Positions 6,616 through 23,297 of a stretch of 46,402 nt of DNA are shown piece after piece (within the stretch, counting starts at the first letter, position 1; every line of letters starts with the position of its first letter). The stretch is from the NCBI GenBank assembly GCA_903902325.1, contig CAIUUO010000182.1, forward strand, positions 1 to 46,402. Reading direction: 5' to 3'. The translations under genes and the position numbers were made by a program. The notes under the pieces were generated by a model, which saw nothing but the letters and a program-made list of their open reading frames with translations, searched no databases and was not told the DNA's origin. This stretch comes from an uncultured Bacteroidia bacterium. Lineage in GTDB: Bacteria > Bacteroidota > Bacteroidia > Bacteroidales > Prolixibacteraceae.

Positions 6616-6620
6616 GAAGA

Positions 6621-6784: not shown

Positions 6785-6828
6785 AATGCTGCTTATTATT
6801 GAAATTTAGAAACTGAAAAAATATAAAC

Positions 6829-7356: not shown

Positions 7357-7376
7357 ACCTTTAAAACTATCAAATT

Positions 7377-7970: not shown

Positions 7971-7981
7971 GCTTTCTGATT

Positions 7982-8605: not shown

Positions 8606-8650
8606 ACCTCACTTTTTGAAATTATTGTATCAATTCAAAAATATCGAGAC

Positions 8651-9247
8651 ATGAACCGTTTCCTGAAAAATAACTCAACGTGGATTGGATTGTCGGCATT
8701 GGCACTCTTAATAATTATACTTGCCTATATTTTCAAGCCAAATCCGCCGGATTATAAGCTCAATGCCGGTCAGTCACTGAAACTGATGAATGATAGAACA
8801 CTGACGATATCGGTAAAAGAAATGGAAGGAAAACAAGCCATTGATATCCGGTCGGCAGAATTGTTCGCCCGCGGACATATCGACAATGCCATCAATATCC
8901 CGGGCCGGCAAATCCTTGACAAGGAATCCATCCAACTATTCAGGCAACTGAAATCAGAGGGTAAAGTCGCAGTAATATACGGAAGTGATGAATTGCAGGC
9001 CATTTCGCCCTGGCTACTGTTGCAGCAACTTGGGTATAAAAATATTTTGCGCCTGAAAGGTGGTTTCACCTCTGACAATAAATTGGCAGAAACAAATCTT
9101 CAATCAACGGAATCATCCGTGTTGGATACGTCTGTGCTTCATGCTAACCTAGGCGTTTCAACGGTTTCGAAACCCCTTACGGACAAACCAAAACCGGAAA
9201 GCATCAATTTGGGGAAAAAGGCATCAGCTGCAGGAGGGGGTTGCTGA
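8651..9247 (+). CDS. Membrane-anchored rhodanese-like protein without catalytic Cys, GGGC tail (copy 2)
   Basis: The 198-residue paralogue of the preceding protein has an N-terminal membrane segment (residues 12-28) and a rhodanese fold (QAIDIRSAELFARGHIDNAINIPGR, then LRLKGGFTSD). Here the active-site loop reads VIYGSDELQAISP, Gly in place of Cys. After a Ser/Thr/Pro-rich linker it ends AAGGGC, and that terminal Cys is the only cysteine in the protein. It is the last gene of the sulfur cluster; a strong hairpin and T-run follows 50 bases later. Shared loss of the catalytic Cys with a retained GGGC end argues for function and not decay. Confidence 0.8.
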   Translation: MNRFLKNNSTWIGLSALALLIIILAYIFKPNPPDYKLNAGQSLKLMNDRTLTISVKEMEGKQAIDIRSAELFARGHIDNAINIPGRQILDKESIQLFRQLKSEGKVAVIYGSDELQAISPWLLLQQLGYKNILRLKGGFTSDNKLAETNLQSTESSVLDTSVLHANLGVSTVSKPLTDKPKPESINLGKKASAAGGGC

Positions 9248-9296
9248 GAGGAAAACTATCCAGAAATATTACAACTTCTCATAATACTGAACTACA

Positions 9297-9329
9297 AAAG
9301 GTTAAACACAAATGTTTGACCTTTTTTTA
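9297..9329 (+). terminator. Rho-independent terminator of the sulfur operon
   Basis: The arms AAAGGTTAAACA and TGTTTGACCTTT (one internal mismatch) flank a CAAA loop and are followed by a run of T. It lies 50 bases after the second rhodanese-like gene. Confidence 0.85.
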
Positions 9330-9548: not shown

Positions 9549-11108
9549 TTGAAAAGACTAAAATCAAATATAGATCACACAGAAGCAAAGTTTAAGGAGA
9601 AGGTCGAGGTATACAAGGAGTTGATGGACATTTTCCATGCTGAAATCGACAAAGTTCTGAGGAGAGATGATGATCCATCTGTAATAAGACACAGGACGCG
9701 CGGAAAGCTGGATGCACGCAGCAGGATTGACCTGCTGATCGATGAAAAGACCCCTTTCCTTGAACTTTCAACCCTTGCGGCATTCGGTCAGTACGACAAC
9801 AACTTTCCTTCGGCAGGCTTAGTTACGGGCATAGGTAAGATCCATGGCAAACTTTGCATGGTTATAGCCAATGATGCCACTGTAAAAGGCGGAACCTATA
9901 TCAGCGAAACCCTGAAGAAACACCTTCGGGCTCAGGAGGTCGCCTTACGATGCCATTTGCCATGCATTTACCTGGTCGACTCTGGAGGAATATTTCTTCC
10001 CGAACAGGTAAGGATTTTTCCCGATCGTGACGGTTTCGGCCGCATATTTTACAATCAGGCTCAAATGTCGGCTGCAGGAATACCGCAGATATCCATTATC
10101 ATGGGATCGTGCACCGCCGGTGGCGCCTATGTTCCGGCCATGAGCGATGAAACCATCATTGTCAGGAATCAGGGTACTGTATTTATCGGAGGTCCGCCAC
10201 TCGTAAAAGCGGCAACGGGTGAAGAAGTAACAGCAGAGGAACTTGGAGGCGCTGTTGTACATACAGGAATATCGGGTGTCGCCGATCATCTGGCAGAAAA
10301 TGAACCGCATGCAATGCAGATTTGCAGGAACATCCTTGAATTCATTCCATCCAATGAATCTCAAACGCTGGAGATGGCACCCATTGAGGAGCCTGCTTAC
10401 GACACCGGGGACATTTACGGATTGGCGCCGGTAGACCTGCGAAAACCAGTAGACATTATTGAAATTATTGCAAGGATTGTCGATGGAAGCAAGTTCGAAG
10501 AATTCAAGCAGAGCTATGGCCAGACCATTGTAACAGGTTATGCGCGGATACTGGGATTTCCGGTCGGTATTGTTGCAAACAACGGATTTCTCACCTCCGA
10601 GGCATCCCTGAAAGCCGCACATTTTATTGAACTTTGCAACTTTCGCAAAATACCGCTCCTCTTCCTTCAAAATATATCCGGATTTATAGTGGGCAAGAAA
10701 TATGAGCACGAAGGCATTGCGCGAAACGGGGCAAAATTGATTCATGCCGTAGCCACATCCGTTGTACCCAGGATTACTGTTATCATCGGAGGATCATTTG
10801 GAGCCGGCAATTATGCAATGTCAGGCAGGGCTTACGATCCGGATTTTCTTTTCATGTGGCCCTGTGCCAAGATCGGGGTAATGGGAGGACAGCAGGCTCA
10901 GGATGTGCTTGACTCTGTCAATGGAAACAATCAGCAGGATTTGATCAACAGGTTTGAAAGCGAGAGTTCTGCCTATTACAGCACATCTAGACTATGGGAT
11001 GACGGAATCATTGATCCGGCAGATACCAGGACCGTAGTCGGACTGGCAATATCAATAGCTTCCAACAAGAAAACCGCTTCTCCAAAAAATGGGGTGTACA
11101 GAATGTAA
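9549..11108 (+). CDS. liuB: Methylcrotonyl-CoA carboxylase, carboxyltransferase (beta) subunit
   Basis: The 519-residue carboxyltransferase carries the family blocks [47 protein letters not shown] and [16 protein letters not shown]. These match methylcrotonyl-CoA carboxylase beta subunits more closely than propionyl- or acetyl-CoA types. With the biotin subunit it converts 3-methylcrotonyl-CoA to 3-methylglutaconyl-CoA in leucine breakdown. The start chosen is TTG at 9549, because the next in-frame ATG (codon 27) would remove part of the conserved N-terminal helix. It is the first gene of a 13-gene same-strand run with gaps of at most 48 bases. Confidence 0.88.
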
Positions 11109-11147
11109 ATGAAAAATGAAAAATTAGTTGGAATTAGATTGAAATGA

Positions 11148-11933
11148 ATGGAAATTAATTATCAAAATATTGAAGTTGAGCTGGATGGATCGGTGGCCAC
11201 ATTATGGCTTTCGAGGCCAGAAGTTCACAATGCCCTTAACGCCGAAATGATACGCGAAATCAGCGGATTTTTTTTGTGGGCGGAGGATAAATTGGAAATA
11301 CAGGCTGTTGTTGTCATGGGCAGGGGAAAATCATTCTGCGCAGGTGCGGACCTGCAATGGATGAAAGATGCAATTAACCTGGATCGGGATGAGAATCTGA
11401 AGGAAAGCGAAGAATTGTCGTCCATGTTCAAATCTGTTTTTGAAAGTAGTAAAATCGTGGTAGCCGCCATTCATGGCAATGTCTACGGCGGAGGAAACGG
11501 TCTGGCTGCTGCATGCGATCTGGCCTTCAGCACCACAGATGCCCGGTTTTCATTGAGTGAAATGAAGATCGGAATGGCTGCAGCCTCCATAACCCCCTAT
11601 TTGCTGAACAAAATAAGAGCGTCAGAGCTGAAGGAACTGATTTTCACCGCAAGAATCTTCAACAGTGATGAAGCGGTAAGATATGGATTAATCAATCAAA
11701 CTTTTCCAACAAAGGAAGTAATGGATTCCCATGTTGCCGGACTGTTGAAGCAGATTCTGGCAAACGGCAGACAGGCATTGATCGCTTCGAAACAACTGAT
11801 CAACAAAATTGCAATGCAGGGTTCGCCGGAAATAATGGCGCAAATACCGGGCATGCTGGCAAAGATCAGGGTTTCAGCGGAAGCGCAGGAGGGGTTTGCT
11901 GCATTCCTGGAAAAAAGAACACCCAAATGGTAA
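11148..11933 (+). CDS. liuC: Methylglutaconyl-CoA hydratase (enoyl-CoA hydratase family)
   Basis: This 261-residue crotonase has the CoA/oxyanion block KSFCAGADLQWM and the segment GGGNGLAAACDL...FSLSEMKIGMAAASITPYLL. In classical enoyl-CoA hydratase the first of two catalytic Glu sits at the position that is Gly here (GGGxGL), and the second (SEMKIG) is kept. The GGGxGL plus SExKxGxxxAxISPY pattern is that of bacterial LiuC proteins as I recall them. It would hydrate 3-methylglutaconyl-CoA to HMG-CoA. Its place between the two carboxylase subunits strongly supports this. Confidence 0.85.
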   Translation: MEINYQNIEVELDGSVATLWLSRPEVHNALNAEMIREISGFFLWAEDKLEIQAVVVMGRGKSFCAGADLQWMKDAINLDRDENLKESEELSSMFKSVFESSKIVVAAIHGNVYGGGNGLAAACDLAFSTTDARFSLSEMKIGMAAASITPYLLNKIRASELKELIFTARIFNSDEAVRYGLINQTFPTKEVMDSHVAGLLKQILANGRQALIASKQLINKIAMQGSPEIMAQIPGMLAKIRVSAEAQEGFAAFLEKRTPKW

Positions 11934-11981
11934 TTCAAAATTTTGGTTTATATCAACAAAACATAGTTAGTCAATCATAAA

Positions 11982-13976
11982 ATGGCATTTCCGGATAAAT
12001 TATTGGTGGCAAACAGGGGTGAAATAGCGTTGCGGATTATCAGTTCGGCAAAGCTGTTGGGGATAAAGACTGTCGCCATATTTTCGGAATCAGAAAAAGA
12101 ATCGGGATACGTAAGCCTGGCCAATGAGAAAATTTCGCTGGGTGACGGAGATCTTGCTGCCACTTTCCTGAATATCGGCAGGATCATTGATATTGCTGTT
12201 TCTACGGGTTCTGATGCCATTCATCCGGGGTACGGGTTCTTGTCTGAGAATCCCGACTTTGCCGCTGCATGCAGTGAAAATAAAATCATTTTCGTTGGTC
12301 CGGAACCTGAAGTACTCAGGTTGATGGGTAACAAGCCCGATGCCAAAAAATTAGCTGCATCACTAGGAATTCCGATTATTTCAGGCTTTACCATCAATCA
12401 TCAGACTGAAACCTCCAACTTCGAGTTTGATTTTCCGTTAATGGTAAAGGCGTCCTATGGCGGCGGCGGAAAAGGAATGAAAATTGTCGGGAACAAGGAA
12501 GAGTTGAGCTTTCAGTTAAATCGATCCGCCCGCATGGCCCGGGAATATTTCGGGAATGGCGAAATCTTTGTAGAAAAATACATTCGGAATGCCCGTCATG
12601 TTGAAGTCCAGATTCTCGGCGACAAGTTCGGGAATGTGATCCATTTGTACGAACGGGAATGTTCCATCCAGCGCAACCATCAAAAATTAATAGAGGAGGC
12701 TCCTGCCCTATTCCTTTCGCCGGATTTGCGGGAAAAAATTTTGTCGGATGCCTTGGTAATCGCAAAGGCCGTCAAGTATTCGGGAGCAGGAACCGTTGAA
12801 TTTTTAGTGGATCAGGCAGGAAACCATTATTTCATGGAAATGAATCCGAGAATTCAGGTGGAACATGCTGTCACTGAGCAAGTCACCGGAATTGACATCA
12901 TAACTGAACAGTTGAAAATAGCCTCAGGCTTAACACTTTCGTATGTACAGGAAGAGGTGGTTGTCGTTGGTCATGCCGTTGAAATAAGGATCTATGCGGA
13001 AAATCCAGAACGGGATTTTCGTCCTTCGTCAGGGCAAATATTATCAATAAATCTTCCTGTAAATCAGGATGTAAGGATTGAAGCAGATTTGGAGAACAAG
13101 CATCTTGCGTGCAATAATTTCGACCCTCTCCTGCTGAAACTGATAAGCACTGGGAAAAACCGTGAAAATGCCGTCAATCTGCTCCAGACTAGTATACGGA
13201 ATTTGAATATAATTGGACCGGAAACCAACGTCAAATACCTTGAAACGATTCTTGAACATGAGTTATACAGGCAAAATGCAATTTCAGTCGAATTTTGCCG
13301 GACTCACCACGATCAACTGACTTCTTATGCAAAAGGTCAGGCGGATGCTTCCCTCCTGCCCTTTCTCCTGGCTTTTGGAATTGAAAAATCATACAGGGAG
13401 AAAAATGAAACAGTATTGAACGATCCATGGAATTATCAGGGCTACTGTCGTTTGTCGGCACAAGCCATATCCTTATCCGTTGACAATACTATTCACAGGA
13501 TTTACCTTGCATATCAAGACAGGTCAATTCCGAATTTCAGCCTGAATGGATGTACAACCAGCTATCACACTGAGAAAGTCGGCAATGATGGCATCCAAAT
13601 CACTATCAACGGTGAATCCAAGGTAATTCAACACCATCAGGGACCAGACAGGGAAATAATCGCAAGTTGTGAGAATATTCGGCACTCTATCAACTTTCCG
13701 GGGTCGCTGAGGTATTATCCGGAAACCGGATTACCACCGGTACAAGAAACATCCAATCAATCAGCCGAGATCGTCTCCCCCTTGCATGGGAAGATTCTGG
13801 ATATATACATCTCAGAGAACCAGCTGATTAAGAAAGGAGATCCGTTGCTCGTCATAGAGGCCATGAAAACAGAAAACCACATTCTTGCGCACAGGGATGC
13901 CAGGGTTAAAAAAATTAAAGTCAAAGTAGGAGCTCAGGTCACCGACCGGATGCCCCTGATATTATTGGAGGATTAA
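11982..13976 (+). CDS. liuD: Methylcrotonyl-CoA carboxylase, biotin carboxylase/biotin carrier (alpha) subunit
   Basis: The 664-residue protein begins with a biotin carboxylase core (KLLVANRGEIALRI, the glycine-rich KASYGGGGKGMKIV ATP loop, ECSIQRNHQKLIEEAP, EMNPRIQVEHAVTEQVTGID). A linker domain follows, then a biotinyl domain with the EAMKTENH motif, where Lys629 would carry biotin. The length and domain order fit MCC alpha. It lies 48 bases after the hydratase and one base before the acyl-CoA dehydrogenase. Confidence 0.9.
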   Translation: MAFPDKLLVANRGEIALRIISSAKLLGIKTVAIFSESEKESGYVSLANEKISLGDGDLAATFLNIGRIIDIAVSTGSDAIHPGYGFLSENPDFAAACSENKIIFVGPEPEVLRLMGNKPDAKKLAASLGIPIISGFTINHQTETSNFEFDFPLMVKASYGGGGKGMKIVGNKEELSFQLNRSARMAREYFGNGEIFVEKYIRNARHVEVQILGDKFGNVIHLYERECSIQRNHQKLIEEAPALFLSPDLREKILSDALVIAKAVKYSGAGTVEFLVDQAGNHYFMEMNPRIQVEHAVTEQVTGIDIITEQLKIASGLTLSYVQEEVVVVGHAVEIRIYAENPERDFRPSSGQILSINLPVNQDVRIEADLENKHLACNNFDPLLLKLISTGKNRENAVNLLQTSIRNLNIIGPETNVKYLETILEHELYRQNAISVEFCRTHHDQLTSYAKGQADASLLPFLLAFGIEKSYREKNETVLNDPWNYQGYCRLSAQAISLSVDNTIHRIYLAYQDRSIPNFSLNGCTTSYHTEKVGNDGIQITINGESKVIQHHQGPDREIIASCENIRHSINFPGSLRYYPETGLPPVQETSNQSAEIVSPLHGKILDIYISENQLIKKGDPLLVIEAMKTENHILAHRDARVKKIKVKVGAQVTDRMPLILLED

Positions 13977-13977
13977 A

Positions 13978-15126
13978 ATGAACGAATTATTAGACAAGGC
14001 TACAATAGAATACAGGAAGATGATCAGGGTTTTTGCCGAACAAGTGATCAAACCCATCGCTATCGAGCAAGATGAAAAGGAGGAATTTCCTGTACTTCTG
14101 GCAAAACAGATGGGCGATGCCGGACTTTTCGGGATCACACTACCACGGGAGTACGGTGGTCAGGGCCTCGATTACCTTTCCTATATTATTGCCATAGAAG
14201 AAATTGCGAGGGTCGACAGTTCCCCTGCGGCAACAGTCGCAGCCCACAACTCGCTGGGAATTGCCCCTATTTATACCTTCGGCACTGAGGATCAGCGGTT
14301 AAAATACCTGCCTGGATTGTGCACCGGGGAAAAATTGTGGGCTTTTGGCCTCACGGAAGCCAACGCAGGATCAGATGCCAAAGGCGTTGAGACAGCAGCA
14401 AAACAGGAAGGCGAAAAATGGATCATCAACGGTTCAAAAATATTTATCACCAACAGCGCCTCTGCCATTGCCTCAGGTATAACGCTTCAATCCATCACGG
14501 ATGTAAAAAATGGGGAGAAGGAGCTGTCTGTCATCCTGGTCGAAAGGGATACACCTGGTTATTCTGCAACACCAATCAAAGGGAAACTGATGTGGAGGGC
14601 CGTTGACAATGGAAAACTAAATTTTGAAAATTGCGAAGTTCCGGCTGCAAGCCTTCTGGGCAAGCGCGGAGAAGGCATGAAAATCATGCTATCCACCCTC
14701 GATTCCGGAAGACTTTCCATTGCCGCCATGGGACTCGGACTCGCCCAGGGAGCCTTCGAAATGGCCCTGGATTACGCGCAAAAACGCAAACAATTCGGAA
14801 AACACCTGTTTGAATTTCAGGCAATCTCGTTTAAACTGGCTGAAATGGCCACAAAAATTGAGCTGGCCAGGAACACGCTTTACCATGCTTGCCGTCTCAG
14901 GGACGCCGGATTACCCTTTGCCAAACAGGCAGCCATCTCAAAACTATATTGTTCTGAAATTGCCAAGGAGGTATCTGATGAGTCCCTTCAGATTCATGGT
15001 GCATACGGCTTCCTGCGTGAAAACCATATTGAGCGGTTCTATCGCGACCAGCGGTTGCTCCAGATTGGAGAAGGCACTTCCGAAATATTGAAAATGGTCA
15101 TCTCCAGAAATATTATCCAGCCATAA
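13978..15126 (+). CDS. Acyl-CoA dehydrogenase, short/branched-chain type
   Basis: The 382-residue flavoenzyme has LWAFGLTEANAGSDA (FAD/substrate region), RKQFGKHLFEFQ and IHGAYGFLRENHIERFYRD. The catalytic base appears to be Glu365 in QIGEGTSE, the short-chain/butyryl-type position. True isovaleryl-CoA dehydrogenases have Ala there (IGAGTSE) and place the Glu in the LDLER segment, which reads LDSGR here. So although the operon calls for an isovaleryl-CoA dehydrogenase, the residue pattern says SCAD-like. It may act on isovaleryl-CoA, another branched acyl-CoA, or butyryl-CoA. Confidence 0.85.
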   Translation: MNELLDKATIEYRKMIRVFAEQVIKPIAIEQDEKEEFPVLLAKQMGDAGLFGITLPREYGGQGLDYLSYIIAIEEIARVDSSPAATVAAHNSLGIAPIYTFGTEDQRLKYLPGLCTGEKLWAFGLTEANAGSDAKGVETAAKQEGEKWIINGSKIFITNSASAIASGITLQSITDVKNGEKELSVILVERDTPGYSATPIKGKLMWRAVDNGKLNFENCEVPAASLLGKRGEGMKIMLSTLDSGRLSIAAMGLGLAQGAFEMALDYAQKRKQFGKHLFEFQAISFKLAEMATKIELARNTLYHACRLRDAGLPFAKQAAISKLYCSEIAKEVSDESLQIHGAYGFLRENHIERFYRDQRLLQIGEGTSEILKMVISRNIIQP

Positions 15127-15137
15127 TCCCATCGGTC

Positions 15138-16190
15138 ATGGAAATCGTAAAAAAAGCAGATAAAAGCCTCAATCAAGAGTTAATGGCATCTTCAGACCGG
15201 AAATCTGACCACATCAATCTGTCCATTCAGTCGCGGACTTCCGTCAGGGAACTGGACAACCGATTTTATTATGAACCCATGATTTCCGGTTTCCCACAAG
15301 AGAATCCCAAGGAAATCCAATTTGCAGGCAAAGTACTGAAGGTACCTATCTGGGTCTCCAGTATGACAGGCGGCCATGCCCTGTCGGGAACCATCAACAG
15401 AAACCTTGCACAGGCCTGCAATGAATTTGGAATGGGCATGGGCCTTGGTTCCTGCCGCAGACTACTCGAGGATGATACCTGTTTCAACGATTTTAATTTG
15501 CGACCAATAATCGGAGACAATCAGCCACTTTTTGCCAATCTGGGAATTGCACAGGTAGAGGAGATTGTCGAAAAAAAGGAGACGGATAGCTTACGCCGCC
15601 TGGTTGACAGATTGCAAGCAGATGGTTTGATCATCCATGTCAACCCGCTGCAGGAATTTTTTCAGCCGGAGGGCAATATCATTCACTATCCACCCGTCGA
15701 AACAATCGAGAAACTTTTGGAATATGTTGATTTTCAGATAATAGTCAAGGAGGTTGGCCAGGGATTCGGTCCACAGAGTATCCGCAGGCTAATGCAGCTG
15801 CCGCTTGCCGCGATTGAGTTTGGAGCTTTCGGAGGAACAAATTTTTCGAAGGTAGAAAACAGTCGCCAACCTGAAAGACAAAAATCGAAATTCCAACCAT
15901 TTGTGAATGTAGGTGTTAGTGCCCTGGAAATGGTTGAACTGATCAACGGTATGGTACAGAATGGGGAACAGTTTGCCTGTAACCAATTGATTATTTCAGG
16001 TGGCATCCAAAATTTCCTGGACGGCTATTACCTGACTGAGAAATCAATCTTACCGGCAATTTATGCCCAGGCATCCCTTTTCCTTCAAAATAGTCGCGGG
16101 GAATATGCAGAATTGCAGCAGTTTATTAGCGACCAGATAGAAGGTTACAAAATGGCCTGTAGTTACCTGACATTGAAAGCAAAACATTAA
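15138..16190 (+). CDS. fni: Type 2 isopentenyl-diphosphate isomerase (FMN-dependent)
   Basis: This 350-residue protein shows the IDI-2 blocks WVSSMTGG, INRNLAQACNEFGMGMGLGS, IIHVNPLQEFFQPEGN (containing the conserved Gln region) and FGGTNFSKVENSR. It interconverts IPP and DMAPP using reduced FMN. It sits 11 bases after the acyl-CoA dehydrogenase and 20 bases before HMG-CoA reductase. It is therefore physically the junction between the leucine-type genes and the mevalonate genes. Confidence 0.93.
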   Translation: MEIVKKADKSLNQELMASSDRKSDHINLSIQSRTSVRELDNRFYYEPMISGFPQENPKEIQFAGKVLKVPIWVSSMTGGHALSGTINRNLAQACNEFGMGMGLGSCRRLLEDDTCFNDFNLRPIIGDNQPLFANLGIAQVEEIVEKKETDSLRRLVDRLQADGLIIHVNPLQEFFQPEGNIIHYPPVETIEKLLEYVDFQIIVKEVGQGFGPQSIRRLMQLPLAAIEFGAFGGTNFSKVENSRQPERQKSKFQPFVNVGVSALEMVELINGMVQNGEQFACNQLIISGGIQNFLDGYYLTEKSILPAIYAQASLFLQNSRGEYAELQQFISDQIEGYKMACSYLTLKAKH

Positions 16191-16210
16191 AACGATTAAG
16201 GTTCAGAATC

Positions 16211-17518
16211 ATGACGATTGTATCCGGATTTTCAAAACTTAACAGGGCCCAAAGGATCAAATACCTCGTGGAACATTCAAAATTGAATGAAGATGATGGC
16301 ATTGGCTTTGGCGAATTTGATGCTGCCGGATTGGAAGATCAACAGGTATTATCAGATATGACAGAAAATTATCTCGGCAACTTTCCAGTTCCGATGGGTG
16401 TGGTAACAAATTTGGTGCTCAATGGAGTGATTATTTCGGTTCCATTTGTGACGGAGGAAAGTTCAGTAGTAGCTGCGGCCTCCAAGGCAGCAAAATTCTG
16501 GGCCTCCAGGGGAGGATTCAGGGCAGTTGTCTTATCGACAATCAAAAAGGGACAGGTTCACTTTACCTGGAATGGCAAACCGGAGACCATCTCGGCTTTA
16601 TTTCCGGCAATCAGGGAAAAACTAATTCTTTCAGTAACCGATCTGACAGCAAAAATGAGAAAACGAGGGGGCGGTATCACAGAAATACATCTCCTTAACA
16701 AAACTTTAGAACTAACTGACTATTATCAAATTGATGTTTCCTTCGAAACCGCAGAGGCGATGGGAGCCAATTTCATTAACAGCTGCCTGGAGACTTTTGC
16801 CTCTGTACTGCGAAATATTCCGGAATTGAATTCGGGAGAGCAGAAGGTTGAAATCATCCTTTCCATCCTTTCCAATTATACACCTGATTGCAGGGTAAAA
16901 TGCCACGTGGAATGTCCTGTAGAAGATCTGGCAGGTTGGAATAAGAACTTGACAGGCAAAGCTTTTGCGGTCAAATTCAAACAAGCCGCTGACATTGCCA
17001 ACCTTGATGCTTCCAGGGCTGTTACCCACAACAAAGGAATCTTCAATGGTATAGATGCCGTGTTGGTGGCAACAGGGAACGACTGGAGGGCAGCCTCATC
17101 CTCCGCACATGCATATGCGTCCAGGGAAGGCCGGTACAAGAGTCTTACCTGGATTGATAGTTCGGATCAGATTTTCCGCTACGAGCTCGAACTTCCCCTG
17201 GCAATTGGTACCGTTGGCGGAATCACGCACATTCATCCCGGGGTGAAGAGAGCCATGGCCATGATGAACGATCCCGACGCCCGACAACTGATGATGATTG
17301 CCGCCGCTTCAGGCCTTGCCAGCAATTTTTCCGCAGTAGCTTCTCTGATTACGACAGGCATACAGGAGGGACACATGCGGATGCACCTGACAAATATTTT
17401 AAGCCAGTTGAATGCAAGCCAGGCTGAACGCGAATATGCCGTGAGCCATTTTCAAAGAAATGCGATAAGTTATGCAGCCGTCGGGGATTTAATCGCTCAA
17501 ATCAGAAAAGAGCCATGA
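16211..17518 (+). CDS. mvaA: HMG-CoA reductase, class II (bacterial)
   Basis: The 435-residue protein has the full catalytic set when laid on the Pseudomonas mevalonii enzyme: Glu in VTEESSVVAAAS (residue 82/83), Lys275 in HNKGI, Asp291 in ATGNDWRA, and His388 in GHMRMH. Soluble class II enzymes can run either way. Given mevalonate kinase and decarboxylase genes directly downstream, the synthetic direction (HMG-CoA to mevalonate) is likely. No HMG-CoA synthase lies in the window; HMG-CoA could come from the leucine genes upstream. The stop overlaps the next start by four bases. Confidence 0.93.
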   Translation: MTIVSGFSKLNRAQRIKYLVEHSKLNEDDGIGFGEFDAAGLEDQQVLSDMTENYLGNFPVPMGVVTNLVLNGVIISVPFVTEESSVVAAASKAAKFWASRGGFRAVVLSTIKKGQVHFTWNGKPETISALFPAIREKLILSVTDLTAKMRKRGGGITEIHLLNKTLELTDYYQIDVSFETAEAMGANFINSCLETFASVLRNIPELNSGEQKVEIILSILSNYTPDCRVKCHVECPVEDLAGWNKNLTGKAFAVKFKQAADIANLDASRAVTHNKGIFNGIDAVLVATGNDWRAASSSAHAYASREGRYKSLTWIDSSDQIFRYELELPLAIGTVGGITHIHPGVKRAMAMMNDPDARQLMMIAAASGLASNFSAVASLITTGIQEGHMRMHLTNILSQLNASQAEREYAVSHFQRNAISYAAVGDLIAQIRKEP

Positions 17519-18516
17519 AGAATCCTGAAACAAGTACATTTGAATCAAGGGCCAAACTGATGGTATCAGGCGAATACCTGGTGCTGAAAGGTGCGCTTTC
17601 AATGGCGTTGCCACTGAAATTCGGCCAAAAACTGAAGGTGATGACCCAGAAAGGAATTCCTGTTGTAAAATGGGAATCATTTAATAAAAACGAACATTGG
17701 TTCTCGGCAACCTTGCAATTACCGGATCTCAAGGTAACAGATTCCAATTTACCGCTAATTTCCGAAACACTTCGTCAAATTTTGATGGCAGCACGTGAAT
17801 TGAATCCTGAATTCCTTCAAATCGGGCAGGAATACCATATCATATCGGAAATGGATTTTGATCCAAACTGGGGAATCGGATCCGGCAGTTCCCTGATATC
17901 CAACATTGCTTATTGGGCAGAATGCGATCCGTTCCTCCTCAACAAAATAATTTTCAACGGATCGGGCTACGATATTGCCTGCGCAAGATCCTCCTCTCCG
18001 ATTATCTACAAAACGACGGAAGATAAACCTGTGTGGAGAGAAGCCAATTTTCATCCCGGTTTTCACAAACATCTCTATTTCGTGTACCTGAATCAAAAAC
18101 AAAATACGAAGAAGAGCATCCATGAGACCGATCTTTCAGCAGTTTCATCCGCCGAGATAGCGCTGATATCATCCATTACCAAAGAACTCGAAAAGGCTGA
18201 CAATCTGCAGGATTTTCAACTGTTGATGAATGAGCACGAAGAGATTATAAGCAAAATCATCTGCAAAACGCCTATTAAACCATTACTATTCAATGATTTC
18301 AACGGTTCTGCAAAATCGCTTGGTGCATGGGGAGGTGATTTTATCCTGGCAGCGTCCAGTGCTTCGGAACAATATGTAAAAAAATACTTTGCCGGGAAAA
18401 ATCTTTCAACAATTTTCCGATACGATGAGATCGTTTTGCAAAGGGAATCTACTAAAACGGCTCTATCCCGAAGCTTTAACTCTTCGGGTATCCTGCAAAT
18501 GCAGAATAGCAAATGA
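17515..18516 (+). CDS. GYDIA-family GHMP kinase, probable phosphomevalonate kinase
   Basis: The 333-residue GHMP-fold protein has the ATP loop WGIGSGSSLI and the GYDIACARSSSPIIY signature that gives this Bacteroidota kinase family its name. A C-terminal GAWGGDFILA glycine segment is also present. It overlaps both HMG-CoA reductase and diphosphomevalonate decarboxylase by four bases. Since the pathway needs a phosphomevalonate kinase and none of the usual type is present, this protein is the obvious candidate. The activity is inferred from context. Confidence 0.82.
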   Translation: MKNPETSTFESRAKLMVSGEYLVLKGALSMALPLKFGQKLKVMTQKGIPVVKWESFNKNEHWFSATLQLPDLKVTDSNLPLISETLRQILMAARELNPEFLQIGQEYHIISEMDFDPNWGIGSGSSLISNIAYWAECDPFLLNKIIFNGSGYDIACARSSSPIIYKTTEDKPVWREANFHPGFHKHLYFVYLNQKQNTKKSIHETDLSAVSSAEIALISSITKELEKADNLQDFQLLMNEHEEIISKIICKTPIKPLLFNDFNGSAKSLGAWGGDFILAASSASEQYVKKYFAGKNLSTIFRYDEIVLQRESTKTALSRSFNSSGILQMQNSK

Positions 18517-19592
18517 CAACAAAGATGAATGATCAAACAATTAAAATAGGCTGGAAAGCCCCTTCAAACATCGCCCTCGTCAAGTATTGGGGAAAAAGGG
18601 CAGGACAATTGCCGGTCAACGGATCACTCAGCATTACCCTGGAAAAATCCACCACTACGACCTTTCTCACATTTAGTCGGAAGCTAAAATCCGGTGGAGC
18701 AATTGAAATGGAGTACTTCTTTCATGGAAATAAACAGGAGAAATTCAGTGAAAAAATACTCAGCCTGTTAAACAGCCTGATTGCTGAACTGCCTTTTCTG
18801 ACAGATTTCAGGCTCGTCATCGAAAGCGAAAACAATTTTCCGCATTCGGCAGGGATTGCTTCCTCTGCTTCGTCCATGGCTGCGCTGGCGCTCTGCCTTG
18901 TAACTATGGAAGAGATTGTTACGAATGTTTACCTACCGGAAGCTGATTTTTTCAAAAGGGCCTCCACCCTGGCACGGCAAGGATCAGGCAGTGCTTGCCG
19001 TTCGGTGTACGGCGGAATCGTTAGCTGGGGGAAAATTGCCTCCATACGCACGTCGTCCGACCAATATGCCTCACCCTTTCCGGTAAACAGTGAAAGCAGG
19101 ATCAACCATCTGCGGGATACAATCCTGATTGTTAGCTCAGAAGAAAAATCACTATCCAGCAGCTCCGGACATGCTGCCATGGCTGACCATCCCTACTGGG
19201 AAGGCAGAAGGGTGCAAGCCAATGGAAATCTTGAATTGATTACTGATGCCATTCGGAATGATGATTATCAGTTACTCTCCAAAATATCTGAAAATGAAGC
19301 CCTTTCGTTGCATGCCCTGCTACTCTCCTCCTCCCCTGGTATTGTGTTGCTCAAACCGAATACCCTCCGGATTATCGAAGAAATCAGACGATTCAGGGAG
19401 GCAACAGGACTCGACCTGCTTTTTACCATCGATGCAGGGCCGAATGTCCACCTGATTTACTTTGAGGATCAGCGCGAAATGATAATGCCCTTTGTCAGCA
19501 AGACGCTCAGCCAATTCTGCGAGAACGGAACCTGGATTGACGATAAAATCGGAACCGGGCCCCGGTTATTAACCCCTAAAGTTGAATTATGA
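18513..19592 (+). CDS. mvaD: Diphosphomevalonate decarboxylase
   Basis: The 359-residue protein has the hallmarks of the family: APSNIALVKYWGKR near the N-terminus, PHSAGIASSASSMAALA (ATP loop), RQGSGSACRSVYGGIVSW, MADHPYWEGRR and TIDAGPNVHLI with the catalytic Asp. It makes IPP from diphosphomevalonate. ATGA overlaps on both sides tie it to the neighbouring kinases. Confidence 0.94.
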   Translation: MTTKMNDQTIKIGWKAPSNIALVKYWGKRAGQLPVNGSLSITLEKSTTTTFLTFSRKLKSGGAIEMEYFFHGNKQEKFSEKILSLLNSLIAELPFLTDFRLVIESENNFPHSAGIASSASSMAALALCLVTMEEIVTNVYLPEADFFKRASTLARQGSGSACRSVYGGIVSWGKIASIRTSSDQYASPFPVNSESRINHLRDTILIVSSEEKSLSSSSGHAAMADHPYWEGRRVQANGNLELITDAIRNDDYQLLSKISENEALSLHALLLSSSPGIVLLKPNTLRIIEEIRRFREATGLDLLFTIDAGPNVHLIYFEDQREMIMPFVSKTLSQFCENGTWIDDKIGTGPRLLTPKVEL

Positions 19593-20548
19593 TTGATTTC
19601 CCGGGTAAAATACTTCTTTTTGGCGAATATGGAATCCTTCTGAATTCCAAGGCATTGACCGTCCCATTTTACCGCTTTTCCGGAAGATTCAGATTCGCTG
19701 ATGCTTCAATGGGTAGATCCCTGAAAACGGAAGCCGTGTCGAGGGTTGAGTTGGGAAAATTGCTCCGTTACCTGAAATCAGGGATGGAAAATTGCAGCTT
19801 TCTGGATCTGGAAAAATTTGGGGATGACCTAAAACGTGGACTTTATTTTGACTCGTCGATCCCACATGGCTCAGGGCTGGGCAGTTCCGGTGCCTTAACG
19901 GCTGCCGTTTATGCAAGGTATGCCGGGACACTGCCCACAGACGAATTTCTGAAAACAAAAAAAAATCTGGCATTCATTGAAGCTTGTTTTCACGGAGTAA
20001 GTTCAGGTATTGATCCATTGACATCCTTCTATACTAAGCCTGTACTGCTTGAGAATGCAACGTCCAAATTCGAAATCGCAGATCTTTCCCTATTCCTCGA
20101 AAAATATTCTCTTTTTTTGATCAACACGCATCAAAAAGGCAATACAGGCGAACTGGTAAGCCATTTTATGGAAAATTGCCAGGAGCCGGTATACAGAAAA
20201 AAAATTGAGTCTGAATACCTGCCACTGATCAATCAAACCATTGAGGCCATTGTTTCGGAGGATTTTGAATCTTTTGAATCCTCTATGAAAAAATACTCAA
20301 CGTTTCAACTTTCCTGGTTTGATAGGATGGTTCCGAAATTGCTAAAAAAACACATGGATTATGGAACAAAATCATCTGATTTCTATATAAAACTATGTGG
20401 ATCCGGAGGGGGTGGGTATATGCTCGCTATTACCCGAAACAGACAAAAGGCTGAGCACTATTTCAATTCAAATCAACTGGACTTTTCCATTGTCGAAAAA
20501 AATGAAATAAACAACCAGGTTTTAATCAATAATTACGCAAATATCTGA
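19589..20548 (+). CDS. Mevalonate kinase (GHMP family)
   Basis: The 319-residue GHMP kinase opens with FPGKILLFGEYGIL and has the ATP loop PHGSGLGSSGALTAAVYARY, a GVSSGIDPLTS motif (catalytic Asp) and LCGSGGGGYMLAITR at the C-terminus. GID in motif 2 and the context favour mevalonate kinase. The alternative is that it and the GYDIA kinase swap roles. It overlaps mvaD by four bases. Confidence 0.85.
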   Translation: MIDFPGKILLFGEYGILLNSKALTVPFYRFSGRFRFADASMGRSLKTEAVSRVELGKLLRYLKSGMENCSFLDLEKFGDDLKRGLYFDSSIPHGSGLGSSGALTAAVYARYAGTLPTDEFLKTKKNLAFIEACFHGVSSGIDPLTSFYTKPVLLENATSKFEIADLSLFLEKYSLFLINTHQKGNTGELVSHFMENCQEPVYRKKIESEYLPLINQTIEAIVSEDFESFESSMKKYSTFQLSWFDRMVPKLLKKHMDYGTKSSDFYIKLCGSGGGGYMLAITRNRQKAEHYFNSNQLDFSIVEKNEINNQVLINNYANI

Positions 20549-20553
20549 ATATC

Positions 20554-21492
20554 ATGAAACAACAAAGCAAAATAGTCGTCTGGCTCAATCAAATCAGGGC
20601 CAATTTTCTGGTACTAGCAGTTCTTCTGGTGCTTATCGGCATCGCCCTGGCTTATAAATATGTGCCTGCACACCATGCCATCAGATGGTTTGATATAGGG
20701 CTGATTATCTTCGGAACAGTGGTGTCACATGCTTCCGTCAACCTGTTCAACGAATATTCGGATCACATCACAGGAATCGACAAGAATACGAACAGAACCC
20801 CTTTCAGTGGCGGGAGCGGAATGATGAATTCCGGACTGACAAAACCTGCCGAAGTATTGGCAGCGGCCATACTGACCCTTCTTATTGCCGGTTCTATTGG
20901 TATTTATTATGGAATGACGGCGCACTGGAGTCTGTTTGCAATCATGCTGACAGGCGCTTTCTCCATTGTTTTTTACACGCCATTATTGACAAAATTGATG
21001 CTTGGAGAACTCTTTTCAGGATTGACCCTCGGAACACTCGTTGTTTTGGGAACATTTATTGCCCTGACAGCAACTCCCGGTCAGCCGGTTGGCACATTAC
21101 TTCCCATAGAAGTAGTCATGGTATCCATTCCTCCGGGAATTCTGACCGCGTTGCTTCTCTTCCTGAACCAGTTTCCGGATACGGAAGCCGACCGAAAAGG
21201 CGGAAGGAAGCACCTGATCATCAAATTTGGATACAGAAATGCTTCCTACATCTATACTGCAGGTGTCATTGCCACATTTGCCATTATTTTCCTCCTTCCG
21301 ATTTTAGGAGTTTCATCCTTCTGGCTTTACCTGGGGTTGCTGCCATTGCCGATTATCTTCAAGGCAACTTCTACAACCCTTAAATTCTACAACAAGACCG
21401 AAAAACTAATTCCGGCTCTCGGAGAAAATATTGCAACCGTTTTACTTACGGATGCATTGCTTGCAGCTGCCATTTTTATCACATTATTCTGA
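20554..21492 (+). CDS. UbiA-family prenyltransferase, MenA-like
   Basis: This 312-residue polytopic protein has about eight hydrophobic segments and the two Asp-rich prenyl-diphosphate motifs: NLFNEYSDHITGID near residue 63 and NQFPDTEADRKGGRKHL near residue 208. The best guess is 1,4-dihydroxy-2-naphthoate polyprenyltransferase for menaquinone. Its position five bases after mevalonate kinase fits use of the operon's isoprenoid product. Another aromatic acceptor cannot be excluded. Confidence 0.8.
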   Translation: MKQQSKIVVWLNQIRANFLVLAVLLVLIGIALAYKYVPAHHAIRWFDIGLIIFGTVVSHASVNLFNEYSDHITGIDKNTNRTPFSGGSGMMNSGLTKPAEVLAAAILTLLIAGSIGIYYGMTAHWSLFAIMLTGAFSIVFYTPLLTKLMLGELFSGLTLGTLVVLGTFIALTATPGQPVGTLLPIEVVMVSIPPGILTALLLFLNQFPDTEADRKGGRKHLIIKFGYRNASYIYTAGVIATFAIIFLLPILGVSSFWLYLGLLPLPIIFKATSTTLKFYNKTEKLIPALGENIATVLLTDALLAAAIFITLF

Positions 21493-21498
21493 TTTCAC

Positions 21499-22353
21499 AT
21501 GACAATCGCCACCCGACGCCTTCCTTCCTGGATGAAAACTCCCCTCCCCTCTGGAAAGGAGTATATATCACTGAAGAATCTTGCGTCCGCCCAGAAATTG
21601 AATACGATATGCGTAAGCGGAAATTGTCCGAACAAGGCGGAATGCTGGGGTGCGTCCACGGCGAGTTTTATGATTTTGGGTGAAAAATGCACCCGAAACT
21701 GTCGGTTTTGCGACGTTAAGAACATGATTCCTGATCCTGTTGACATGGATGAGCCTCAACGGTTGACAGAAACAATCCGGGCACTTGGGATCAAACACTG
21801 CGTGATCACCTCGGTCACGAGGGATGACCTCGAAGACGGAGGAGCTGCTTTTTGGGCGCTGACCATCCAAACCATCAGGAAAATGAATCCAGGCGTGACC
21901 ATCGAAACCCTGATACCGGATTTCCATGCGAGGGCTGAACTAATCGGTAAAGTTGTGGATGCCGCTCCCGAGGTAATTTCCCACAACATGGAAACTGTGA
22001 GGAGGCTAACTCCAAAGGTAAGGGACATCGCCCGTTATGACAGAAGCCTGAAGGTAATTGAAATCATAGCCTCTTCAGGCATTGTACCCAAATCGGGAAT
22101 CATGGTTGGTTTGGGTGAAACTGAAGCAGAGGTTTTGGAAACCATGGATGATCTTCTCGCTGCAGGTTGCAGGGTGCTGACGATCGGACAATATCTGCAG
22201 CCTTCGCCACACCATCTGAAGATTGAGGAGTACGTACAACCCGAAATATTTATCAAATACCGTGAGGCAGCGCTTGCAAAGGGATTCAGCATGGTAGAAA
22301 GCAGTCCGCTGGTACGTTCCTCCTACCACGCAGAAAGACATATTCACGCTTAA
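21499..22353 (+). CDS. lipA: Lipoyl synthase (radical SAM)
   Basis: The 284-residue protein has both LipA cluster motifs: CVSGNCPNKAEC (CX4CX5C, auxiliary cluster) and CTRNCRFC (CX3CX2C, radical SAM cluster). It ends with the conserved RSSY. It inserts sulfur into octanoyl domains. Lipoate is needed by branched-chain 2-oxoacid dehydrogenase, the step that forms isovaleryl-CoA from leucine, which may explain its place in this operon. Confidence 0.96.
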   Translation: MTIATRRLPSWMKTPLPSGKEYISLKNLASAQKLNTICVSGNCPNKAECWGASTASFMILGEKCTRNCRFCDVKNMIPDPVDMDEPQRLTETIRALGIKHCVITSVTRDDLEDGGAAFWALTIQTIRKMNPGVTIETLIPDFHARAELIGKVVDAAPEVISHNMETVRRLTPKVRDIARYDRSLKVIEIIASSGIVPKSGIMVGLGETEAEVLETMDDLLAAGCRVLTIGQYLQPSPHHLKIEEYVQPEIFIKYREAALAKGFSMVESSPLVRSSYHAERHIHA

Positions 22354-22364
22354 AATTTCAGAAA

Positions 22365-23093
22365 ATGAATCAAAACATGCATATCGCTGCGCAACCTGTT
22401 AAGTTGCGGCACAAAAAAAATTCATACTATACCCGAATGAAGAAAATTTCACACTGTAAGCTATTGGATATTAGAAATCTGACCGAATCTACCTATGTCC
22501 TTAGAATCGAAAAAAATGATTTTGAGTTCAGGGCAGGACAGTACCTGGTTTTAAACATTCCTGGCGAAAACAATGCGCGTGAATATTCAATTTACAGTCC
22601 GGAGAATGTGCCCTATATTGATCTTCTCATCAAGGAGGTTACGGAAGGAGATGTATCCGTCAAATTGAAATCTCTGAAACCTGGTACAAAACTCGAAATT
22701 TCGGGTCCATTTGGTTTTTTTATTTTGAGGGATAACAGGAACAGCGAAAACAACCATTTCACTTTCGTGGCTACAGGCACTGGCATCTCCCCTTTCAGAA
22801 GCATGATCCTTTCGAATCCCGATCTGAAATATAACCTGATCCATGGCGTAAAATTCAACCATGAAGCCTATGAATCTGGGGATTATCCGGCTGAACGCTA
22901 TACCGTTTGCACATCGCAGGAAGAGGGAATCGGTTATTCCGGAAGGGTAACCCAATACCTGGAAGAAAAAGGGATCAGGAAAGATTCCGTTTATTATATC
23001 TGCGGGAATTCAGGAATGGTAAATGAAGTAACCGGTTACCTGGAAAAAAACGGAATCCTGCCCGAGAACATCCGGACCGAGATTTTCTTTTGA
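22365..23093 (+). CDS. FAD/NAD(P)-binding ferredoxin-reductase-like oxidoreductase
   Basis: The 242-residue FNR-superfamily protein has the FAD motif REYSIYS (near residue 70), the pyridine-nucleotide motif ATGTGISPFRSM and a C-terminal YYICGNSGMV segment. It has no fused ferredoxin or membrane part. It could recycle electrons to a ferredoxin or flavodoxin for LipA or the FMN isomerase. The partner is unknown. The start at 22365 gives an N-terminal extension of about 24 residues; an internal ATG at 22437 is an alternative. Confidence 0.85.
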   Translation: MNQNMHIAAQPVKLRHKKNSYYTRMKKISHCKLLDIRNLTESTYVLRIEKNDFEFRAGQYLVLNIPGENNAREYSIYSPENVPYIDLLIKEVTEGDVSVKLKSLKPGTKLEISGPFGFFILRDNRNSENNHFTFVATGTGISPFRSMILSNPDLKYNLIHGVKFNHEAYESGDYPAERYTVCTSQEEGIGYSGRVTQYLEEKGIRKDSVYYICGNSGMVNEVTGYLEKNGILPENIRTEIFF

Positions 23094-23105
23094 TCCACTC
23101 AGGCC

Positions 23106-23297
23106 ATGCAAACACAAATGTATTCAAAATACGAGCCCAGGGAGTGTGCACGATGTCACAAGACACATATCTGCACACTTACTATTCATTGTTCCTGTAT
23201 GGAAGCAGAGATTTCGGAGGAGACAATGGATAAGATTTCGTACCATTTCGACGACTGCCTTTGTGCGGATTGTCTGAAAGAGCTGGAAAAAAATTAA
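23106..23297 (+). CDS. Small cysteine-rich CWC-family protein
   Basis: The 63-residue protein has eight Cys in the order C14xxC17-x5-C23-x5-C29xC31-x19-C51xC53xxC56, resembling the 'cysteine-rich CWC' family, which usually carries CWC where this one has CSC. It probably binds a metal; no function is known. It begins 12 bases after the flavin reductase and is the last gene of the operon, followed by an 85-base convergent gap without a clear hairpin. Confidence 0.75.
   Translation: MQTQMYSKYEPRECARCHKTHICTLTIHCSCMEAEISEETMDKISYHFDDCLCADCLKELEKN

What the first reader, a model, noticed from the sequence alone, without database searches (positions are those of the whole stretch)
9549..23297. One 13-gene operon appears to join leucine breakdown to the mevalonate pathway at HMG-CoA
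Seen: methylcrotonyl-CoA carboxylase beta and alpha, a LiuC-type hydratase and an acyl-CoA dehydrogenase are followed, with gaps of 1-48 bases or 4-base overlaps, by IPP isomerase, HMG-CoA reductase, a GYDIA kinase, diphosphomevalonate decarboxylase and mevalonate kinase. A prenyltransferase, lipoyl synthase, a flavin reductase and a CWC protein complete the run. Known: the leucine path normally ends with HMG-CoA lyase, and the mevalonate path normally starts with HMG-CoA synthase. Neither is here. Inference: leucine carbon enters isoprenoids without passing through acetyl-CoA, as reported for leucine use in trypanosomatid sterol synthesis. The tail genes fit too: lipoate for branched-chain oxoacid dehydrogenase, and the prenyltransferase for menaquinone.
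Basis: partly seen in the sequence, partly recalled or inferred. Interest (0 to 1): 0.82.

Follow-up and report, generated by a model that had tools for sequence, protein, structure and literature searches.

The report
Operon feeding leucine into isoprenoid synthesis
A group of Bacteroidota bacteria appears to have wired the breakdown of the amino acid leucine straight into the making of isoprenoids (the building blocks of quinones and carotenoids), by swapping the enzyme that normally finishes leucine breakdown for the start of the mevalonate pathway.

Summary
The 13-gene run is real: mccB-hydratase-mccA-ACAD-idi2-HMGR-GYDIA kinase-mvaD-mvk-menA-lipA-flavin reductase-CWC, gaps -4 to +48 bases. 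The window's draft genome (98% complete) shows no HMG-CoA synthase by two models and no HMG-CoA lyase: its HMGL-like proteins are LeuA and a CimA-like protein. The core order recurs, with a few losses, in 44 HMGR neighbourhoods of at least 16 family codes; all 44 genomes lack both enzymes by profile. In relatives with HMGR elsewhere, the mccB-hydratase-mccA-ACAD block can carry a lyase. In 8 of 11 close relatives a 2-oxoacid dehydrogenase E1 precedes mccB. Best reading: leucine or ketoisocaproate becomes HMG-CoA, whose only recognised exit is mevalonate and IPP. Limits: DXP reductoisomerase is also present; no flux was measured; few independent events underlie the pattern. None of 80 HMGR-bearing genomes tested in this order has a recognisable synthase: leucine feeds mevalonate throughout, or an unknown synthase exists. 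The chemistry is known from trypanosomes and myxobacteria.

The parts
9296..9325 (+). terminator-like stem (13 pairs) plus T run between the upstream rhodanese genes and mccB
   Evidence: consensus match only; 21 such sites found in the scanned region against a mean of 15.0 in shuffles
9549..11108 (+). mccB, 3-methylcrotonyl-CoA carboxylase beta (519 aa, TTG start)
   Evidence: chains named MCC 549-608 bits, AccD1 625; geranyl-CoA carboxylase 410; most propionyl-CoA carboxylases 280 or less (one chain so named, 9tps, 615)
11148..11933 (+). 3-methylglutaconyl-CoA hydratase candidate (crotonase fold, LiuC-like)
   Evidence: below the cut-offs of all models shown; one of the two crotonase Glu positions (recalled) kept in LSEMKIG, the other is Gly
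11982..13976 (+). mccA, biotin carboxylase plus biotin carrier domain (664 aa)
   Evidence: EAMKT biotin motif read from the sequence
13978..15126 (+). acyl-CoA dehydrogenase, proposed isovaleryl-CoA dehydrogenase of short-chain ancestry
   Evidence: a relative of it (63-64% identical) sits in the lyase-carrying leucine clusters
15138..16190 (+). idi2, type 2 isopentenyl-diphosphate isomerase
   Evidence: TIGR02151 192.9 bits (below its cut-off of 281.3), the only family matched
16211..17518 (+). HMG-CoA reductase, class II-like
   Evidence: TIGR00532 236 bits, cut-off 259.95; 7n7s 416 bits; E, K, D and H of the motifs EESS, NKG, GND, GHM kept
17515..18516 (+). GYDIA-family GHMP kinase, proposed phosphomevalonate kinase
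   Evidence: NF040656 336 bits, cut-off 225; function inferred by elimination
18513..19592 (+). mvaD, diphosphomevalonate decarboxylase
   Evidence: TIGR01240 183 bits, cut-off 171.35
19589..20548 (+). mvk, mevalonate kinase
   Evidence: TIGR00549 86.5 bits (below cut-off 163.05), best family
20554..21492 (+). menA-like 1,4-dihydroxy-2-naphthoate prenyltransferase
   Evidence: best 106.4 bits; below the models' cut-offs
21499..22353 (+). lipA, lipoyl synthase
   Evidence: TIGR00510 336.8 bits, cut-off 310.25
22365..23093 (+). FAD/NAD(P)-binding flavin reductase-type protein
23106..23297 (+). cysteine-rich CWC protein (63 aa)
   Evidence: PF14375 29.7 bits, cut-off 24

Best explanation
The operon encodes a leucine-fed mevalonate pathway. 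A branched-chain 2-oxoacid dehydrogenase (an E1 is encoded just upstream in most close relatives; lipoate supplied by LipA) makes isovaleryl-CoA; the operon's acyl-CoA dehydrogenase makes 3-methylcrotonyl-CoA; MccAB carboxylates it to 3-methylglutaconyl-CoA; the hydratase gives HMG-CoA. With no HMG-CoA lyase recognised, HMG-CoA is not split to acetyl-CoA and acetoacetate but reduced by HMGR to mevalonate, which Mvk, the GYDIA kinase (as phosphomevalonate kinase) and MvaD turn into IPP, and Idi2 into DMAPP; MenA uses part of the product for menaquinone. With no HMG-CoA synthase recognised, leucine or its keto acid is the only recognisable source of HMG-CoA. Shown here: gene content, order, conservation, genome-wide absence of both enzymes by profile search. 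Inferred: substrate specificities, direction, flux, and that the co-existing MEP pathway makes this a second IPP supply, not the sole one.
For: (1) 13 tightly packed genes. (2) No HMGS in the own genome: PF01154 and profile A1. PF01154 finds HMGS in 21 of 46 HMGR-bearing Bacteroidota genomes; A1 finds 3 of 3 positive controls at 692-881 bits, of which two (G103, G225) had given rows to A1 and one (G031, 692 bits) had not. (3) No lyase: PF00682 and NF004283 find only LeuA (733 bits, cut-off 532) and a CimA-like protein (667 bits, under that model's cut-off of 950). (4) mccB and HMGR lie 3.0-5.4 kb apart in 28 of 108 HMGR-bearing genomes of the order, in 16 family codes. (5) Of 44 linked genomes tested, 0 have HMGS over the cut-off (A1) and 0 have a lyase-like protein of about 300 aa (best linked score 60 bits, in longer frames), while 10 of the 18 unlinked HMGR genomes of the order that I tested (of 80) and 14 of 14 tested f5-f7 genomes of the same class do. 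(6) In five unlinked HMGR genomes (picked because a lyase hit lay on the MccB contig) and in one genome without an HMGR match, the same mccB-hyd-mccA-acad set carries a lyase, with acetoacetate-CoA ligase in two and a 3-oxoacid CoA-transferase subunit identified beside one. (7) A 2-oxoacid dehydrogenase E1 fusion directly precedes mccB in 8 of 11 close relatives with enough upstream sequence (L004, L005, L007, L008, L010-L016). (8) 100 of 108 HMGR genomes have MCC beta against 51 of 285 without HMGR.
Against: DXP reductoisomerase is intact in the own genome and present in 41 of 44 linked genomes, so the route is not needed as the only IPP source. Absence rests on profile searches of a draft genome (304 contigs, 98.44%). 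25 of 46 HMGR-bearing Bacteroidota genomes, 11 near-complete DXR-less f6-f7 ones among them, also show no HMGS: this fits leucine feeding there too, but equally a synthase family that both models miss. 8 of 108 HMGR genomes show no MCC at my threshold. 8 of 18 unlinked HMGR genomes of the order also lack a lyase, so lyase loss is not confined to the linked state. The link between linkage and lyase loss rests on few events: the best HMGR tree needs 4 changes of linkage, supported branches force only 1, and only one independent pair lies on supported branches. The ACAD is not of the classical isovaleryl-CoA dehydrogenase type. E1 is not next to the operon in this window, nor in 3 of the 11 close relatives, nor was it seen in the other linked neighbourhoods. 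E1, aminotransferase and other ACADs were not sought in the rest of the own genome.
Confidence: 0.8

Rival explanations
1. An unrecognised, non-homologous or very divergent HMG-CoA synthase supplies HMG-CoA from acetyl-CoA; the leucine genes share the operon only for joint regulation, or HMG-CoA is pooled from both sources.
For: HMGS is missing from all 80 HMGR genomes of this order tested with PF01154 and from 25 of 46 in the phylum draw, including 11 near-complete genomes without DXR for which some HMG-CoA source is presumably essential. 8 of 108 HMGR genomes have no MCC by my threshold.
Against: PF01154 rings in 7 of 14 control genomes, Lactococcus and four archaea among them; it and A1 find the f5-f7 synthases. 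An archaeal-type synthase does occur in this order (G704, L193) and scores 524 bits. A lyase is missing from all 44 genomes in which MCC sits beside HMGR, which this rival does not predict.
Confidence: 0.12
2. The upper genes run in reverse: HMG-CoA or mevalonate is turned into isovaleryl-CoA for iso-branched fatty acids, as in the alternative isovaleryl-CoA route of myxobacteria.
For: Bacteroidota make iso-branched fatty acids (recalled); a myxobacterial HMGS-dependent route to isovaleryl-CoA is cited in PMC7321100 and PMC9636800 (passages seen).
Against: It needs HMGS, which was not found; it would not need mevalonate kinase and mvaD in the same operon; a 2-oxoacid dehydrogenase E1 sits upstream in relatives.
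Confidence: 0.03
3. The carboxylase set acts on another substrate (for example terpene-derived acids, as in the Atu pathway) and the operon recycles isoprenoids.
For: The hydratase's second-best NCBIfam model is gamma-carboxygeranoyl-CoA hydratase (207.6 bits, cut-off 426); AtuA-family proteins sit in the same kind of MCC operon in five other genomes of the order.
Against: MccB scores 549-608 bits with chains named MCC against 410 with geranyl-CoA carboxylase. No AtuA lies in the window's operon. The same four genes occur with a lyase and acetoacetate-activating genes, as in ordinary leucine breakdown.
Confidence: 0.05

Closest known systems
Trypanosomatid leucine-to-sterol route (T. brucei, PMC5993337; abstract and passages seen)
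   Same: Leucine carbon reaches HMG-CoA through isovaleryl-CoA dehydrogenase, MCC and hydratase and enters mevalonate; deletion of isovaleryl-CoA dehydrogenase abolished leucine incorporation into sterols.
   Different: Eukaryote; T. brucei also has a thiolase/HMG-CoA synthase bridge from acetyl-CoA, whereas no synthase was recognised in the window's genome. No operon is mentioned in the passages seen.
Myxobacterial leucine-dependent isoprenoid supply (PMC7321100; passages seen)
   Same: Bacterial; feeding of dimethylacrylic acid, tied by the authors to the leucine degradation pathway, labels a terpenoid while 13C2-acetate gave no significant shift.
   Different: Myxobacteria have HMG-CoA synthase MvaS and an alternative isovaleryl-CoA route (cited); no single MCC-HMGR-mevalonate operon is described in the passages seen.
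Leucine degradation (liu-type) operon
   Same: mccB-hydratase-mccA-ACAD block in the same order in lyase-carrying clusters of this order.
   Different: HMG-CoA lyase is replaced by idi2-HMGR-GYDIA-mvaD-mvk.
Mevalonate pathway with diphosphomevalonate decarboxylase
   Same: HMGR, mevalonate kinase, mvaD, type 2 Idi present.
   Different: No HMG-CoA synthase and no thiolase in the operon; the phosphomevalonate kinase would be a GYDIA-family protein of unproven function.

Membership tests
Leucine degradation operon (leucine to acetyl-CoA and acetoacetate) | MCC beta and alpha subunits | tested here: met
   (by homology)
Leucine degradation operon (leucine to acetyl-CoA and acetoacetate) | 3-methylglutaconyl-CoA hydratase | tested here: inconclusive
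   crotonase family by sequence; below every cut-off among the 25 models shown; activity not testable
Leucine degradation operon (leucine to acetyl-CoA and acetoacetate) | classical isovaleryl-CoA dehydrogenase | tested here: inconclusive
   ACAD of short-chain type; Glu in IGEGTSE kept in 22 of 22, no Glu in the D-x-GRL stretch; the Glu positions of MCAD and IVD are recalled
Leucine degradation operon (leucine to acetyl-CoA and acetoacetate) | HMG-CoA lyase in operon or genome | tested here: not met
Classical mevalonate pathway | HMG-CoA synthase | tested here: not met
Classical mevalonate pathway | HMGR with catalytic motifs | tested here: met
   (catalytic residues recalled)
Classical mevalonate pathway | mevalonate kinase and diphosphomevalonate decarboxylase | tested here: met
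   (mvaD over its cut-off; mevalonate kinase best family but below cut-off)
Classical mevalonate pathway | phosphomevalonate kinase | not testable with these tools
   GYDIA-family kinase in the right place, activity unproven
Leucine-fed mevalonate route (trypanosomatid type) | leucine label in isoprenoids | not testable with these tools
   needs isotope tracing
Leucine-fed mevalonate route (trypanosomatid type) | enzyme set from isovaleryl-CoA to mevalonate | tested here: met
   as homologues only

The most novel reading that the evidence does not exclude
In several Bacteroidota lineages leucine (or its keto acid) is the obligatory source of all isoprenoids. In one family-level group (f143: G578, G407, G695, G501; 99-100% complete) I found HMGR and MCC beta but no HMG-CoA synthase, no lyase and no DXP reductoisomerase. 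Eleven f6-f7 genomes of the same class likewise show HMGR, no synthase and no DXR, though they keep a lyase and their MCC was not tested. In the window's lineage the operon is a dedicated junction whose only recognised exit for HMG-CoA is isoprenoid synthesis, so past isovaleryl-CoA leucine breakdown is an anabolic pathway.
Probability: 0.45. Interest if true: 0.87.

Novelty: new variant of a known kind. Interest (0 to 1): 0.73.

Why it matters
Textbook bacterial isoprenoid synthesis starts from pyruvate plus glyceraldehyde phosphate (MEP) or from acetyl-CoA (mevalonate through HMG-CoA synthase). [quoted passage not shown] An operon that replaces HMG-CoA lyase by HMG-CoA reductase, in genomes without a recognisable synthase, would make amino-acid breakdown a real isoprenoid source in a bacterial order. 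It would also explain how HMGR-bearing genomes that look incomplete in mevalonate synthesis work, and would offer an acetyl-CoA-independent mevalonate module.

Tried and rejected
Reverse flow to isovaleryl-CoA, terpene recycling (Atu-like) and a hidden synthase were considered; see rivals. The HMGL-like hits in the own genome looked like possible lyases at first; they are LeuA, beside ilvC, and a CimA-like protein. Weak synthase hits are short matches at 15.6-18.3 bits: E 0.0017-0.009 in G343, G149, G085 and G497 (frames of 316-357 aa), 0.0036 in G466 (219-aa frame) and 0.0074 in G359 (1235-aa frame). I treat them as noise or beta-ketoacyl-ACP synthase relatives. I tried to correct the lyase association for shared ancestry on an HMGR tree; it gave one usable pair on supported branches, so the Fisher value of 4e-7 must not be read as independent evidence. 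A simple Bacteroidota-type promoter pattern (recalled motif) was not found upstream of mccB. Paper searches for a synthase-less or leucine-fed mevalonate pathway in Bacteroidota gave no such report: (open-licence library only; listings, with passages of PMC9636800 and PMC10663253 seen).
Full report
What is there. The window lies on contig 182 of a 4.79 Mb draft genome (304 contigs, 98.44% complete, 1.83% contamination). Between 9549 and 23297 thirteen genes run on the + strand with gaps of -4 to +48 bases. Searches identify them as listed under parts. MccB is MCC-type. HMGR is nearest the class II model, just under its cut-off; the E, K, D and H of its motifs EESS, NKG, GND and GHM are kept in all 60 HMGRs aligned (their catalytic role is recalled). 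The crotonase keeps one of two Glu positions. The acyl-CoA dehydrogenase is closest to short-chain/butyryl enzymes (351 bits against 229-251 for chains named isovaleryl-CoA dehydrogenase) and has Glu in the IGEGTSE motif in 22 of 22 aligned copies. That this is the MCAD/SCAD and not the isovaleryl position is recalled knowledge. A relative of the same ACAD gene is found in lyase-carrying leucine clusters, which is why I still take it to be the isovaleryl-CoA step. A terminator-like stem separates the operon from the rhodanese genes upstream.

The rest of the genome. No HMG-CoA synthase: PF01154, 0 matches at E <= 0.001; profile A1, built from eight synthases of f5-f7 genomes, 0 matches at E <= 0.01. 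No lyase: PF00682 finds two proteins of about 510 aa, which are LeuA, next to ilvC, and a CimA-like protein; NF004283 finds the same two at 48 bits or less. DXP reductoisomerase is present and intact (389-aa frame). So the genome carries the mevalonate enzymes from HMG-CoA on and at least the marker enzyme of the MEP pathway.

Are the negative searches credible? PF01154 rang in 7 of 14 control genomes, four archaea among them; E. coli rang too, which has no such synthase (recalled), so the model also catches relatives. It found synthases in 21 of 46 HMGR-bearing genomes drawn from the phylum (20 at 70-85 bits, one truncated copy at 49). All 21 belong to the codes f5, f6 and f7 of the same class, which I take to be flavobacterial (names are not given). 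A1 found 3 of 3 positive controls at 692-881 bits, but G103 and G225 had given rows to A1; only G031 was independent. One order member, G704, has an archaeal-type synthase that scores 524 bits against NF003274, so recognisable synthases occur in this order; that genome is not among the HMGR-positive ones.

Conservation. One scan of named genomes returned 34 loci, 19 of them Bacteroidota (L004-L022). Titles name Prolixibacteraceae, Mariniphaga and Tangfeifania MAGs among the nearest, so the window probably comes from that neighbourhood (inference). In the order of the window's genome 108 of 393 genomes have HMGR and 151 of 393 have MCC beta at E <= 1e-140; 100 of 108 HMGR genomes have MCC beta against 51 of 285 without HMGR. 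In 28 of the 108 the two genes lie 3.0-5.4 kb apart on one contig, in 16 family codes. I read 44 linked neighbourhoods including the window. The core order mccB-hyd-mccA-acad-idi2-hmgr-gydia-mvaD-mvk is near constant. Exceptions: mccA absent from the stretch in L140 and L141; hyd absent in L016; idi2 absent in L142 and L203; an insert and no idi2 in L017; mvk not recognised in L205 and L209, mvaD not recognised in L201; L006, L009, L017, L198 and L208 cut by contig ends. Genomes G001-G019 and the order draw may overlap in species, but all 88 HMGR rows of the tree differ.

The swap. Of 44 linked genomes tested, none has HMG-CoA synthase (PF01154; A1: with two weak hits, G343 and G497, at 15.6-17.8 bits) and none has a lyase-like protein of about 300 aa: at E <= 1e-10 their best NF004283 score is 60 bits, in longer frames like those of LeuA. 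I tested 18 of the 80 unlinked HMGR genomes of the order for a lyase; 10 have one and 8 do not. All 14 f5-f7 genomes tested and the Saprospiraceae genome G017 have one. Only G017 exceeds the curated cut-off of NF004283; the others score 176-202 bits, so 'lyase' is a family assignment. I then read 16 chosen MCC neighbourhoods outside the linked set (five were picked because a lyase hit lay on the MccB contig). In six (L188-L192, L195; the last from a genome without an HMGR match) the block mccB-hyd-mccA-acad carries a lyase, with acetoacetate-CoA ligase in L188 and L189 and a 3-oxoacid CoA-transferase subunit identified beside L190's. In five (L186, L187, L194, L196, L197) an AtuA-family protein of about 600 aa lies between mccA and acad. 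In L193 an archaeal-type synthase, a thiolase and an OB-fold protein lie there. The other four are the f143 loci described below. The window's operon is therefore one of several versions of the same leucine module, the one whose exit is HMG-CoA reductase.

Upstream. In 8 of 11 close relatives with enough upstream sequence (L004, L005, L007, L008, L010-L016), a gene of about 806-812 aa directly precedes mccB. It is a fused alpha-beta E1 of a 2-oxoacid dehydrogenase (PF00676, PF02779, PF02780; L005's copy). Its sequence does not separate branched-chain from pyruvate dehydrogenase (best PDB scores 129 and 147 bits). It was not seen beside mccB in the window or in the more distant linked neighbourhoods. 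In a Saprospiraceae genome the same kind of gene precedes HMGR by about half a kilobase (L020). LipA follows mvk or menA in all 11 close relatives whose contig reaches that far (L004, L005, L008-L016).

Mechanism. I take the pathway to be leucine or ketoisocaproate, isovaleryl-CoA, 3-methylcrotonyl-CoA, 3-methylglutaconyl-CoA, HMG-CoA, mevalonate, IPP/DMAPP. The gene content and absences are shown; direction and flux are inferred. The genome also encodes LeuA and IlvC, so ketoisocaproate could be made in the cell as well as taken from outside leucine (inference). Since 41 of 44 linked genomes have DXR (G005, G008 and G010, whose completeness is not told, do not), the route is most likely a second IPP supply and at the same time the only recognised outlet for HMG-CoA. 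What selects for it is open.

How general. 80 HMGR-bearing genomes of the order (27 linked and 52 unlinked, checked, plus the window's own) were tested with PF01154, and none exceeds the cut-off; 28 of the 108 were not tested. In group f143 (G578, G407, G695, G501) HMGR and MCC beta are present and synthase, lyase and DXR were not found. Three of the four f143 MCC neighbourhoods carry hyd, mccA and acad (L182-L184); a phosphate butyryltransferase gene follows acad in L182 and L184, and a butyrate kinase gene follows it in L184 (L184's transferase by eye only). Eleven f6-f7 genomes lack synthase and DXR but have the lyase; MCC was not tested there. Either leucine feeds mevalonate in all these, or a synthase family unknown to both models exists.

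Statistics and limits. The association of linkage with lyase loss is strong by count (lyase in 0 of 44 against 10 of 18) but rests on few evolutionary events: the best HMGR tree needs 4 changes of linkage, supported branches force only one, and only one independent pair lies on supported branches. The better argument is that the order has been kept through long divergence (median end branch 0.34 changes per site).

Literature. Leucine feeding of sterols through HMG-CoA is established in T. brucei (PMC5993337; abstract and passages). Leucine-pathway feeding of a myxobacterial terpenoid is reported in PMC7321100 (passages). PMC9636800 states that the mevalonate pathway is not dependent on branched-chain amino acid degradation because it has a synthase (passage). 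Searches for a synthase-less or leucine-fed mevalonate pathway in Bacteroidota found no report in this open-licence library; subscription journals are mostly missing, so priority is not settled.

Corrections made on rereading the calls: names and scores of the PDB chains nearest MccB, the dependence of two A1 controls, the cut-off of the CimA model, lyase score ranges, the selection of the neighbourhoods, and the wording on tree changes.

Noticed in passing
L193 (G704) 2552-5193, - strand: A leucine operon that holds an archaeal-type HMG-CoA synthase (524 bits), a thiolase and a Zn-ribbon/OB-fold protein between mccA and acad, in a genome without an HMGR match: possibly the archaeal thiolase/synthase complex run in reverse to finish leucine breakdown.
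   Followed up: partly
L186, L187, L194, L196, L197: An AtuA-family protein of about 600 aa sits between mccA and acad in five MCC operons; two of these genomes (G466, G342) were tested for a lyase and have none by profile, so it could be another HMG-CoA exit.
   Followed up: partly
L182, L184 (group f143): MCC/ACAD clusters followed by phosphate butyryltransferase (and butyrate kinase in L184), in genomes where DXR, HMGS and lyase were not found: suggests that isovaleryl-CoA is split between isovalerate fermentation and isoprenoid synthesis.
   Followed up: partly
phylum draw, results: 25 of 46 HMGR-bearing Bacteroidota genomes (the window's own included) show no recognisable HMG-CoA synthase; 11 f6-f7 ones tested also lack DXR.
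   Followed up: partly
G085 C89 (L225) and G178, G246, G254, G285: HMGR lies in open frames of 755-779 aa, so it may be fused to another domain, unlike the 435-aa HMGR of the window.
   Followed up: no
L005 4440-4799 and L007 4531-4890: A small 119-aa protein (SnoaL-like in L005) is inserted between mccB and the hydratase in two relatives.
   Followed up: no
window 2876-9247: Upstream of the operon: molybdopterin oxidoreductase, 4Fe-4S and NrfD subunits, two sulphur-transport (PF04143) genes and two rhodanese-like proteins, a sulphur/polysulphide-metabolism-like set.
   Followed up: no
window 23383-25689, - strand: A 768-aa protein that joins a multihaem cytochrome region to TPR repeats.
   Followed up: no
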